Below are positions 11,694 to 18,107 of a stretch of DNA of 43,163 nucleotides, one piece after another. Position numbers and translations under genes: made by a program. Source of the stretch: Solirubrobacterales bacterium (lineage in GTDB: Bacteria; Actinomycetota; Thermoleophilia; Solirubrobacterales; Solirubrobacteraceae); the NCBI GenBank assembly GCA_027306855.1, contig DAHUYZ010000012.1, forward strand, positions 1 to 43,163, given 5' to 3'. Under the pieces are notes generated by a model, which saw only the letters and a program-made list of their open reading frames with translations, made no database searches and had not been told where the DNA came from. The stretch's first letter is position 1; each line of letters opens with the position of its first letter.

Positions 11694-12265
11694 TCGATCT
11701 TGCGGATGACCTTCGCCGGCGCGCCCGCCGCGATCGAGAACGGCTCGATGTCTTTCGTGACGACGCTGTTCGCGCCGATCACGCAGCGCTCGCCGATCTC
11801 AACACCGCTCGTCACGACCACGCCGATGCCCAGCCAGCAGTTATCGCCGACTCGCGTCGGTCCCTTGCTCTCGAAGCCCTGCCATGTGATCGGCTTCTCG
11901 GGGTCGTCGTAGTGGTGGGAGGCGTCTGAGACGAAGCACCCATTCGCGAGCATGCAGTGAGCGCCGATCTCCACGCATTGCTGCGCGGCGATCATCACGC
12001 CCATGTTGATGAACGTCCCTTCGCCGATCTTCACGCGCGCGTCGCTCGGCATCGTGATCCACACGTTCGGCTCGAGCAGCACATGGGGACCGATCTGAAG
12101 GCGTCCCTCGCGCAAAGCTTCGAGCACGTTGCCGTGCACAGGCCAGCGCACGAACGCTTCGCGGCGCATCATCTCGCGGTGGATAGCCACCCGGTTCCAG
12201 GGCAGAGAGTTGCGCTCGTACCAGCGCCACCTGGCCCACCACAGGCGCGCCTTGCCAGCTGTCAC
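11642..12265 (-). CDS. hexapeptide-repeat acyltransferase
   Basis: The 207-residue protein has the left-handed beta-helix repeats of the LbetaH/NodL-LacA-like acyltransferases, for example [45 protein letters not shown] and [14 protein letters not shown]. The [10 protein letters not shown] ending is typical of O-acetyltransferases. The catalytic His is probably in SDASHHYDD. The acceptor is unknown. Start GTG 12265 overlaps the uvrA stop (GTGA), so it is the second gene of the SOS-boxed uvrA transcript. The C-terminal 17 residues, Ser-rich, are encoded antisense to the end of panB. Confidence 0.85.
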
Positions 12266-15147
12266 GCAAGCGCCTTCGCGCGTCGTCTGCGTTGCGGGGG
12301 AGGCTTCGTAGCGAGCATCTCCGCAAGGAACATCCCCGTGTGCGAGGCGGGCTCGGCCGCGACCTCCTCGGGGGTGCCGGCCGCGATTACCATTCCTCCC
12401 TCCTCTCCCCCCTCGGGCCCCATGTCGATCAGGCGGTCCGCGCACTTGATCACGTCGAGGTTGTGCTCGATCACGACCACGCTGTTGCGTGCGTCCACGA
12501 GCCGCTGCAGCACCTCGAGCAGTCGCTGCACATCCGCGAAATGGAGCCCGGTCGTCGGCTCATCGAGGATGTAGAGCGTGCGCCCGGTCGCGATCTTCGA
12601 CAGCTCCGTCGCCAGCTTCACACGCTGGGCCTCGCCGCCCGAGAGCGTCGTGGCGGGCTGACCGAGGCGGATGTAGCCGAGACCGACGGCGTCGAGCGTC
12701 TCCAGGCGCCGTCTGATCTTGGGGATGTGCTCGAAGAACTTCAACGCGTCAGAGACGGGCATGTCGAGGATTTCGGCGATGTTGCGGCTCTTGAAGCGCA
12801 CCTCGAGCGTCTCGCGGTTGTAGCGCTTGCCATGGCACTGCTCGCACGGCACGTACACGTCCGGCAGGAAGTGCATCTCGATCTTGATCTGACCGTCGCC
12901 CTTGCAGACCTCGCAGCGCCCTCCCTTGACGTTGAACGAGAAGCGACCCGGCTTATACCCGCGCGCGCGCGCGTCCTGGGTCTTGGAGAAGAGGTCCCTG
13001 ATCACGTCGAACAGGCCCGTATACGTAGCGGGATTCGAACGGGGGGTCCTGCCGATCGGCGACTGGTCGACCGCGATGATCTTGTCGAGCTGCTCGAGCC
13101 CCTTGATCGCGCGGTGCGTCCCGGAGCGCTGGCGAAGACCCGCCCCGCGGGCGGTGCCCCGGTGCAAGCGATTTGAGAGCGCCTTGAACAGCACGTCGTT
13201 GACGAGCGTCGACTTGCCCGAGCCCGATACGCCCGTCACGCACGTCAGCACCCCGAGCGGAACGTGTACGTCTATGTCTCTCAAGTTGTGCTGGCTGGCC
13301 CCGATGATCTGCAGGTAGCCGGCGGGCTTTCGGCGCTTGGCCGGTGCCTCGATGGTGCGCGTCCCCGCCAGGAACTGGCCCGTAAGCGACTCTGCCACGC
13401 CCTGCACCTGCGCGGCGGTTCCCTGCGCGACTATCCGCCCGCCATGCTCGCCGGCACCTGGGCCCAGATCGACGAGATGGTCGGCGCTTCGCATCGTCTG
13501 CTCGTCGTGCTCGACGACGATCACGGTGTTGCCGAGGTCCCTCAGCCGCTCGAGCGTCGAGATCAGCTTGGAGTTGTCGCGCTGATGCAGTCCGATCGAT
13601 GGCTCATCGAGGATGTAGAGCACACCGACGAGCGAGCTTCCGATCTGGGTGGCCAGCCGGATGCGCTGCGCCTCCCCGCCCGACAGCGTCGACGCCGCCC
13701 GGTCCATCGACAGATACCCGATCCCGACGTTCTCCAGGAACCGCAATCGCTCTGAGATCTCACGCAGGATCAGACGCGCGACGTGCTTGTCGGTGTCCGA
13801 CAGCTCCACCTCCTCGAGCCACGTGAGCGCTCGGCTCGCCGACAGCGCGCAGAAGTCCTCGATGCGCGTCCCCCCCACCAACACCGCCCGCGACTCGGGA
13901 CGCAACCGCGCCCCCCCGCACGAAGGACACGGCCTCAAGGACATGTACTGCTCGATCCGCTCCTTGGTCCAGTCGGAGTCGGTCTCCTTGTAGCGGCGCT
14001 GCAGGCTGTGGACGATTCCCTCGAAGCGCGTCGCATACGACCGGCGCCGGCCGTATCGATTGTGATAGGAGATCTGAAGGCGCTCCCCGTCGGTGCCGTA
14101 CAGGAACAGGTCGCGGTGCTCGGATGGCAGCTGCTCCCAGGGCGCGCCCAAGTCGACGCCGTAGCGGCTCGCGATCGCCTCGGCTACCTGGTCGTAGTAG
14201 TTGGAGGCGCTGTTCCCCCACGGCGCGATCGCCCCCTGCGCGATCGACAGACCAGGATCGGGGATGAGCAGCTCGGGATCGATCTCCATCTGCGAGCCGA
14301 GCCCCGTGCAGCGCTCGCAGGCGCCGTGCGGCGAGTTGAACGAGAAGATCCGCGGCTCCAGCTCCACCAGCGAGGGCCCGTGCTCGGGGCAGGCGAAGTT
14401 CTCCGAGAACGTGCGCACATCGCCATCGACGATCTCTATCTCGACCAACCCGCCGGCGAGCCCCACCGCCGTCTCGATCGAGTCGGCCAGCCGCTTGCGG
14501 ATGTCGTGGCGCATGACGAGGCGGTCCACGACTACCGAGATGTCGTGCTTGTAGCGCTTGTCGAGCACGATCGACTCCTCGAGCATCCGCAGCCGCCCGT
14601 CTATCTTCACGCGCGCGAAACCGTCGGCGCGCATCTCCTCCAGCAACTTCCCGTACTCGCCCTTGCGGCCCCTCACGACCGGCGCGAGCACCATGAAGCG
14701 AGTCCCATCCGCCAGCTCCATCGTCTGGTCGATGATCTGCTCGGCCGACTGCCCGACGATCGGCCGCCCGCACTTCGGGCAGTGCGGCTTGCCGACGCGC
14801 GCCCACAGCAGGCGCAGGTAGTCGTAGATCTCGGTAACGGTCCCAACCGTCGAGCGCGGGTTGCGCGATGTCGTCTTCTGGTCGATCGAGATCGCCGGCG
14901 AGAGCCCCTCGATCGAGTCCACGTCGGGCTTGTCCATCTGGCCGAGGAACTGGCGTGCATACGCCGACAGCGACTCCACGTAGCGGCGCTGGCCCTCCGC
15001 GTAGATCGTGTCGAACGCCAGGCTGCTCTTGCCCGACCCCGACAGGCCGGTGATCACAACGAGCGCGTCCCTCGGCAGCTCGAGCGAGATGTCCTTGAGG
15101 TTGTGCTCCCTGGCCCCCGCGACGACGATCTTGTTGCTCTGCCCCAT
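12262..15147 (-). CDS. uvrA: excinuclease ABC subunit A
   Basis: UvrA is the damage-recognition ATPase of nucleotide excision repair; it loads UvrB. This 961-residue protein has two ABC modules, with Walker [15 protein letters not shown] near the N-terminus and [13 protein letters not shown] in the second half. Signature LSGGEAQR(I/V)(R/K)LA occurs twice. Zinc-module cysteines include [16 protein letters not shown] and CEVCKGDG...[13 protein letters not shown] 15147 follows a TACAAT hexamer by 8 nt with no Shine-Dalgarno sequence, so the mRNA is probably leaderless. A perfect SOS box lies 20 nt upstream, which indicates LexA control. Confidence 0.98.
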
Positions 15148-15155
15148 GAGGGGCT

Positions 15156-15161
15156 ATTGTA
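15156..15161 (-). promoter_or_regulatory. -10 box of uvrA (TACAAT, leaderless)
   Basis: TACAAT on the minus strand, 8 nt before ATG 15147; no ribosome-binding site lies between. The SOS box occupies the spacer and -35 area just upstream. Confidence 0.6.
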
Positions 15162-15167
15162 TTGATA

Positions 15168-15181
15168 CGAACATATGTTCG
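15168..15181 (-). promoter_or_regulatory. LexA-binding SOS box upstream of uvrA
   Basis: CGAACATATGTTCG is a perfect 14-bp palindrome matching the Gram-positive/actinobacterial LexA consensus CGAAC-N4-GTTCG. It begins 6 nt upstream of the uvrA -10 box, where bound LexA would block RNA polymerase. Confidence 0.88.
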
Positions 15182-16085: not shown

Positions 16086-18107
16086 TCAGGCCGGCGCCTG
16101 CGCCGCCTGCACATCCGCCAGCTCGCGCCGCAGCTCCCGTATCTCGTCGCGCAATTGAGCCGCGTACTCGAAGCGCAAGTCCTCCGCCGCTTCGATCATC
16201 TCCTCCTCCAGCTCCACCGCCAGACGCTCGAGCTCGTGCGTGGGCATCTCCTTCGCCTTGGTCCTCGCCGCGCCCTTGCGTCGCCTGCTCTTGGGGACCT
16301 TCGACTCCGCCTGCAAGAACTCCGCTATGTCGGAAACGCCCTTCACGATCGTCGCGGCCGTGATCCCGTGCTCCTCGTTGTAGGCGAGCTGGATCTTGCG
16401 CCGGCGCTCGGTCTCTCCGATCGCGGCCCTCATCGCCTTGGTCTCCTTGTCGGCATACATCAGCACCGTCCCGTTGACGTTGCGCGCGGCCCTTCCAATC
16501 GTCTGGATCAGCGAGGTCTCGCCCCGCAAAAAGCCCTCCTTGTCGGCGTCGAGGATCGCCACGAGCGAGACCTCCGGCAGGTCCAGTCCCTCGCGCAGCA
16601 GGTTGACGCCGACGAGCACGTCGTACTCGCCCAAGCGCAGGTCCCTGATGATCTGGATGCGCTCGAGCGTGTCGATCTCCGAGTGCAGGTAGCGCACCCT
16701 GAAGCCCATCTCGATCAAGTACTGCGAAAGGTCCTCGCTCATCTTCTTCGTCAAGGTCGTCACGAGCACGCGCTCGTCGCAGTCCACACGCCGCCGGATC
16801 TCGTTCATGAGGTCGTCGATCTGGCTCTTCGTCTCCCTGACGTACACCTCCGGGTCCACGATCCCCGTCGGCCTGACGATCTGCTCGACGATCCGCTGCG
16901 ATCGGGCGCGCTCGTACTCGCCGGGCGTCGCCGACACGAACACGAGCTGAGGCGTGATCGACAGGAACTCCTCGAACGTCTGCGGCCTGTTGTCCAGCGC
17001 GCTCGGCAGCCTGAAGCCATAGTCCACGAGCGTGCGCTTGCGCGAGCGGTCGCCCTCGAACATGCCGCCGATCTGGGGCACCGTCTGGTGGGACTCGTCG
17101 ATGAAGCACACGAAGTCGTCCGGAAAGTAGTCGATCAAACAGTACGGTCGCTCGCCCGGTTTGCGCCCGTCGAGGATCCTCGAGTAGTTCTCGATCCCCG
17201 AGCAGAACCCCATCTCGCGCAGCATCTCCATGTCGTACTGCGTTCGCTGCCTCAGACGGTGAGACTCGAGCTGCTTGCCTTCGCGCTCGAGCTCCCCACA
17301 GCGCTCGTTCAGCTCTCTGCCGATCTCCGCAACGGCCGCCTCGACCGTGCCCTCCTTGACGTTGTAGTGCGTCGCCGGCCACACCGCCACGTGCTCGAGG
17401 TCGTCCTCGATCAGCTCGCCCGTCAGCGGGTCGAAGTGCGCCAGCCGCTCGACTTCGTCGCCGAACATGCTCATTCTGAAGGCCGTCTCGGCATAGGCGG
17501 GGAACACCTCCAGCGTCTCCCCCTTGACCCTAAAAGTTCCGCGTGAGAGCACCGTGTCGTTGCGCGTGTACTGGATCGACACGAGCTTTCGCAAGAGCGC
17601 CTCCCTGTCGATCTCCTCCCCTCGCCTCAGGATCTGCATGTTCATCTCGTATGTCTCCGGCGAGCCCAGCCCGTAGATGCATGAGACCGACGCCACAACG
17701 ATTACGTCTCTGCGCGCGAACACGGCCGCAGTCGCAGCGTGTCGCAGCCGATCGACCTCCTGGTTGATAGCCGAGTCCTTCTCGATGTAGAGGTCCCTGC
17801 TGGGGACGTACGCCTCGGGCTGGTAGTAGTCGTAGTAGCTGACGAAGTACTCGACGGCATTGTCAGGAAAAAACGTTCTGAACTCATTGCACAACTGGGC
17901 CGCGAGCGTCTTGTTGTGGGCAATCACGAGCGCCGGCTTCTGGACCGCCTCGATCACGCCCGCCATCGTCATCGTCTTGCCGGTGCCCGTCGCGCCGAGC
18001 AGCGTCTGGAAACGCTCGTTCGCACCCACGCCCTCTGCGAGCGCGTCGATCGCTCTGGGCTGATCGGCCGTCGGCGTGAAGGCGGAATCGAGCTTGAAGG
18101 CGGGCAT
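16086..18107 (-). CDS. uvrB: excinuclease ABC subunit B
   Basis: UvrB is the helicase-like core of nucleotide excision repair that verifies damage and recruits UvrC. Within 673 residues: Walker [14 protein letters not shown] at about residues 39-51, the beta-hairpin [12 protein letters not shown], the DESH box [14 protein letters not shown], helicase motif [10 protein letters not shown], and the C-terminal UVR motif for UvrC ([20 protein letters not shown]). The ATG at 18107 lies 6 nt after the transglycosylase stop, with AGGAGG unusually close (2 nt). No SOS box was seen for it, unlike uvrA. Confidence 0.98.

What the first reader, a model, noticed from the sequence alone, without database searches (positions are those of the whole stretch)
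15156..15181. Perfect SOS box directly over the uvrA promoter
CGAACATATGTTCG (15168-15181) is an exact palindrome matching the LexA consensus of actinobacteria and Bacillus. It starts 6 bp upstream of TACAAT, the probable -10 box, so bound LexA would block the promoter. The co-transcribed acyltransferase (GTGA overlap) would then also be DNA-damage inducible, which is not an expected SOS function.
Basis: partly seen in the sequence, partly recalled or inferred. Interest (0 to 1): 0.55.

Follow-up and report, generated by a model that had tools for sequence, protein, structure and literature searches.

The report
LexA operator over the uvrA promoter
The 14-base palindrome is almost certainly the site where the SOS repressor LexA shuts off the DNA-repair gene uvrA, an ordinary arrangement, although in related bacteria the same site also looks overlaid on the element of a second DNA-damage regulator.

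Summary
CGAACATATGTTCG lies at 15168-15181, 6 bp upstream of TACAAT, which is 8 nt before the uvrA ATG. The window belongs to a Solirubrobacterales-like genome that encodes LexA, whose own gene carries the same box, as do recA and a radical SAM gene. Across the family 48 of 58 uvrA promoters carry exact GAACN4GTTC (0 of 766 control windows), and 44 of 47 sit exactly 7 nt from a TAnnnT -10 box, just before the start codon. Reading it as a LexA operator is well supported; binding and induction were not tested.

Three corrections. The perfect palindrome is atypical: relatives mostly have the asymmetric core GTCT/GTCC, and only the window has ATAT. The acyltransferase overlaps uvrA by 4 nt here and would be co-induced, but the pairing persists where the box is lost and it never has its own box (0 of 53), so it is probably a passenger. 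Box loss recurs (at least 6 changes on the tree), mostly in small genomes that keep LexA.

One lead goes further. In relatives the core puts CGTCYG exactly 10 nt from TAnnnT, the published spacing of the PafBC activator motif, suggesting a combined LexA/PafBC operator. The window has lost that core.

The parts
15168..15181 (.). LexA operator (SOS box) CGAACATATGTTCG
   Evidence: conserved in 48 of 58 family genomes; same box before lexA in 55 of 55 genomes
15156..15161 (-). Probable -10 box TACAAT of the uvrA promoter, 7 nt from the 12-mer GAACN4GTTC
   Evidence: TAnnnT at the same 7-nt gap in 44 of 47 relatives that have both
12262..15147 (-). uvrA; start codon 8 nt after the -10 box, so the mRNA is probably leaderless or nearly so (inferred)
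   Evidence: NF001503, 1531 bits; TIGR00630
11642..12265 (-). Hexapeptide-repeat acyltransferase overlapping the uvrA stop by 4 nt (GTGA); probable passenger of the uvrA transcript

Best explanation
The palindrome is the LexA operator of uvrA. A LexA dimer bound at 15168-15181 covers the region between the -35 and -10 positions of a promoter whose -10 is TACAAT and so keeps RNA polymerase off. After DNA damage RecA filaments trigger LexA self-cleavage and uvrA is transcribed, from at or within a few bases of its start codon. The overlapping acyltransferase gene is transcribed along with it as a passenger. Shown here: the sequence, its fixed geometry in relatives, the LexA gene with its own box, and the recA box. 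Inferred: binding, repression, damage induction, transcription start and co-transcription.
For: 48 of 58 family uvrA promoters carry exact GAACN4GTTC within 80 nt, 0 of 766 control windows farther upstream, 0.055 expected in shuffles. Gap to TAnnnT is 7 in 44 of 47. The box also lies before uvrA in 3 of 4 genomes of a second family and 9 of 9 of a third in the same class. The genome has LexA over the curated cut-off; its sequence retains AAG (cleavage site) and the Ser and Lys positions that align with solved LexA (residue roles recalled). lexA carries the box in 55 of 55 genomes. Own-genome boxes also lie before recA, at a radical SAM gene and 98 nt before dnaB. The motif fits the Streptomyces venezuelae LexA consensus tCGAAC-N4-GNNCGa, and uvrA has a LexA ChIP peak there (PMC9380542, passages and section 7).
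Against: Genome-wide counts of the motif equal the control pattern. No consensus -35. 10 of 58 family genomes and 38 of 38 loci of five other families of the class lack the box. In a phylum sample only 5 of 65 have an exact box within 200 nt of uvrA. In M. tuberculosis UvrA was overproduced without RecA (PMC8151990, passage), so SOS control of uvrA is not universal in the phylum.
Confidence: 0.9

Rival explanations
1. In this family the uvrA operator is a combined element: LexA binds the GAAC...GTTC arms, while the activator PafBC reads CGTCYG in the core, 10 nt from TAnnnT. In the window the core has changed to ATAT, leaving LexA control alone.
For: Published PafBC motifs are tTGTCRgtg-N8-TAnnnT (PMC5656591) and TGTCGG-N10-TA-N3-T (PMC8151990), both GTC-N12-TAnnnT. 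In uvrA promoters GTC stands at that position in 36 of 56, next commonest offset 4. TCCGTC-N12-TAnnnT occurs in 40 of 55 lexA and 9 of 31 recA promoters, apart from the LexA box. Core GTC: 38 of 48 uvrA boxes, all in gene orientation, against 3 of 55 lexA boxes. In two other families boxes at gap 7 have GTC in 4 of 6, other gaps 0 of 6. Elsewhere in the phylum 8 of 65 uvrA promoters have YGTC-N12-TAnnnT. A PafC-type domain is found in 61 of 61 genomes, 47 over cut-off; the own copy is a fused tandem WYL protein.
Against: Shared descent could fix core and orientation. Only 1 of 9 aligned box-less promoters keeps GTC at the position. The window's own promoter lacks it. In the three g13 genomes the displaced box keeps GTCT/ATCT and a CCGTCC element stands at a gap one base shorter. 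Only 47 of 61 genomes have a PafC match over the cut-off.
Confidence: 0.4
2. The palindrome is bound by another dimeric repressor with a similar site, such as an ArsR-family protein, and not by LexA.
For: PMC8151990 (passage) states that E. [quoted passage not shown]
Against: The same arms stand before lexA in 55 of 55 genomes and before own recA, which an unrelated regulator would not explain.
Confidence: 0.05
3. Damage induction of the acyltransferase is itself selected, as an SOS envelope or polysaccharide modification function.
For: Four-nt overlap with uvrA in the window; same-strand within 100 nt of uvrA in 21 of 59 loci and 333-1170 nt in 8 more.
Against: 24 of 59 loci have more than 1 kb of flank without it; 6 cannot be judged. 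0 of 53 have their own box. Pairing persists in 9 of 10 box-less genomes.
Confidence: 0.07

Closest known systems
LexA (SOS) regulon of Actinobacteria, with uvrA as a likely member in Streptomyces venezuelae (PMC9380542)
   Same: Consensus CGAAC-N4-GTTCG type, box at the promoter of uvrA, lexA autoregulation, recA and a radical SAM gene in the regulon
   Different: In this family the box is locked 7 nt from the -10 box of an apparently leaderless uvrA, has a conserved asymmetric core, and is lost repeatedly in small genomes
PafBC / RecA-NDp element of mycobacteria (PMC5656591, PMC8151990, PMC8223512)
   Same: GTC-N12-TAnnnT spacing found before lexA and recA and inside most family uvrA operators; tandem WYL protein with PafC domain
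   Different: Flanking bases are CC-GTC-CG or C-GTC-YG instead of T-GTC-RG; in uvrA it coincides with the LexA box; absent in the window's own uvrA promoter

Membership tests
LexA-controlled SOS operator | Sequence fits CGAAC-N4-GTTCG type consensus | tested here: met
LexA-controlled SOS operator | Genome encodes LexA whose own gene has the same box | tested here: met
LexA-controlled SOS operator | Overlaps the promoter and is conserved before orthologues | tested here: met
   48 of 58; the promoter itself is inferred from TAnnnT
LexA-controlled SOS operator | LexA binding and damage induction | not testable with these tools
   needs gel shift and RNA measurement
PafBC (RecA-NDp) element | GTC-N12-TAnnnT in the window's uvrA promoter | tested here: not met
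   core is CATATG. Met in 36 of 56 family promoters
PafBC (RecA-NDp) element | Genome encodes PafBC | tested here: met
   tandem WYL with HTH_PafC over cut-off
PafBC (RecA-NDp) element | PafBC binding and RecA-independent induction | not testable with these tools
   needs ChIP and RNA measurement

The most novel reading that the evidence does not exclude
In Solirubrobacteraceae and relatives the uvrA control site is one piece of DNA read by two damage regulators: LexA represses through the GAAC/GTTC arms and PafBC activates through the CGTCYG core fixed 10 nt from the -10 box, so that uvrA needs both LexA release and PafBC. The window is a derived case that became a perfect palindrome by losing the PafBC core, and small genomes have dropped the LexA site repeatedly.
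Probability: 0.35. Interest if true: 0.6.

Novelty: new member of a known kind. Interest (0 to 1): 0.38.

Why it matters
It places an actinobacterial class for which the library searches listed no LexA study within the canonical SOS scheme. It also offers a natural series of promoters, with box, without box, and with or without the GTC core, in which the shared logic of LexA and PafBC can be tested.

Tried and rejected
Chance palindrome: rejected by conservation and fixed geometry. Loss of the uvrA box because LexA was lost: rejected, since all ten box-less genomes have LexA, each with a box before lexA. PafC absence as an explanation of core differences: not usable, since all 61 genomes have a match. 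Genome size and box loss: medians 2.1 and 3.9 Mb (Mann-Whitney p 2e-5, not corrected for relatedness); on the tree independent pairs give a median p of 0.0625, so this is suggestive only (FastTree, 3 rows under half filled). The first-pass table mis-set starts in some loci and was replaced. G050's start was moved 75 nt upstream by hand. G057 was left out of the 58 for lack of an N-terminus, and G055's start is uncertain (no box within 400 nt). G025 was counted as lacking a TAnnnT after the box; its printed sequence would allow TATGAT at gap 7 if the start lies further downstream. The automatic starts of the class and phylum loci were not checked by hand; one (G094) is clearly misplaced.

Full report
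The palindrome CGAACATATGTTCG is at 15168-15181. On the minus strand the order is box, six bases, TACAAT (15161-15156), eight bases, ATG of uvrA at 15147. UvrA is unambiguous. The acyltransferase is a hexapeptide-repeat protein whose GTG start at 12265 overlaps the uvrA stop.

The genome is a 2.23 Mb draft, 92% complete. Named relatives of its acyltransferase at 60% identity or more are nearly all Solirubrobacterales, Solirubrobacteraceae or Thermoleophilaceae bins. It encodes LexA. Seven CGAACN4GTTCG sites exist: uvrA, lexA, recA, a radical SAM gene whose start codon lies in the box, dnaB (98 nt upstream), and two not assigned to a gene. The count equals that of the reversed control pattern (7 against 7; 25 against 30 for the 12-mer), so placement, not number, carries the argument.

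Sixty-one family genomes were searched with UvrA and 60 matched. For 58 the start and upstream DNA could be read: 48 have the exact 12-mer in 80 nt, 0 of 766 upstream control windows do, and the gap to TAnnnT is 7 in 44 and 23 in 3 of 47; the start codon follows within 6 to 13 nt. The core is GTCT in 25, GTCC in 13, ATCT in 4, ATCC in 2, and one each of ATAT (the window), AACT, AACC and GTGC. In the class, 3 of 4 loci of family f2 and 9 of 9 of f5 have the box, 0 of 38 loci of f3, f4, f6, f7 and f8. In the phylum sample it is 5 of 65.

All 55 readable lexA genes of the family have the box. recA has an exact box in 8 of 31 and at most one mismatch in 23 of 31. The ten box-less uvrA promoters belong to genomes that keep LexA; the label changes 8 times on a UvrA tree, at least 6 on well-supported branches. 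They are mostly small genomes, though the relatedness-corrected test is not significant at its median.

The acyltransferase lies on the same strand within 100 nt of the uvrA stop in 21 of 59 loci and at 333-1170 nt in 8; 24 lack it within the 1.0-1.6 kb of flank held, and 6 had too little flank. Nine of ten box-less genomes have it, and 0 of 53 readable starts have a box. Co-induction in the window follows from the overlap, but selection for it does not.

A second element emerged. lexA promoters carry TCCGTC 12 nt before TAnnnT in 40 of 55, recA in 9 of 31. In the window's genome a scan for TCCGTCNG-N9-11-TAnnnT gives five sites, three of them next to LexA boxes: lexA, recA and a short frame on contig C222; the control pattern gives four sites. 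Published PafBC motifs have the same GTC-N12-TAnnnT spacing, and the genome encodes a tandem WYL protein with a PafC domain. In uvrA the GTC of the box core falls at this position in 36 of 56, always in gene orientation. Shared descent is a sufficient alternative, and box-less promoters rarely keep the GTC, so I give the combined operator 0.35 to 0.4. The window's ATAT core breaks it, so here LexA control alone is the best reading.

Papers seen: PMC9380542 (passages and section 7); PMC8151990, PMC5656591, PMC6789036 and PMC8223512 (passages); others as listings only. Searches for LexA with Thermoleophilia, Solirubrobacter, or uvrA plus leaderless showed no listed title on this class's SOS boxes, and a search for PafBC, LexA, overlapping, SOS box and uvrA listed two papers. 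The library is partial. LexA residue roles are recalled.

Noticed in passing
L220 and L217 (own recA and lexA promoters); L109-L138, L154-L177 (lexA of relatives): Conserved TCCGTC-N12-TAnnnT before lexA (40 of 55) and recA (9 of 31), with the spacing of the mycobacterial PafBC motif.
   Followed up: partly
L221, minus strand around 1500-1540 (genome contig C222): A LexA box directly after a TCCGTCCG-N10-TACTCT element, the same layout as lexA, ahead of a short unidentified reading frame; divergent to an EPSP-synthase-family gene.
   Followed up: partly
G000 contigs C197 and C185: The window's genome is the only one of 61 with two recA matches at the threshold used; a second recA or a contaminating contig.
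   Followed up: no
uvrA of G014, G035, G050, G018, G005 (L096, L097, L100, L099, L102): UvrA matches are split near residue 241 within one open frame, suggesting an insertion of some tens of residues in the UvrA of these genomes.
   Followed up: no
window 16086-18107 (uvrB): No GAACN4GTTC with up to one mismatch lies just upstream of uvrB; the two near matches are inside its frame, so uvrB appears outside the LexA regulon here.
   Followed up: partly
L001 1501-1514 (genome contig C11): An exact LexA-type box between rplI and dnaB, 98 nt before the replicative helicase gene.
   Followed up: no
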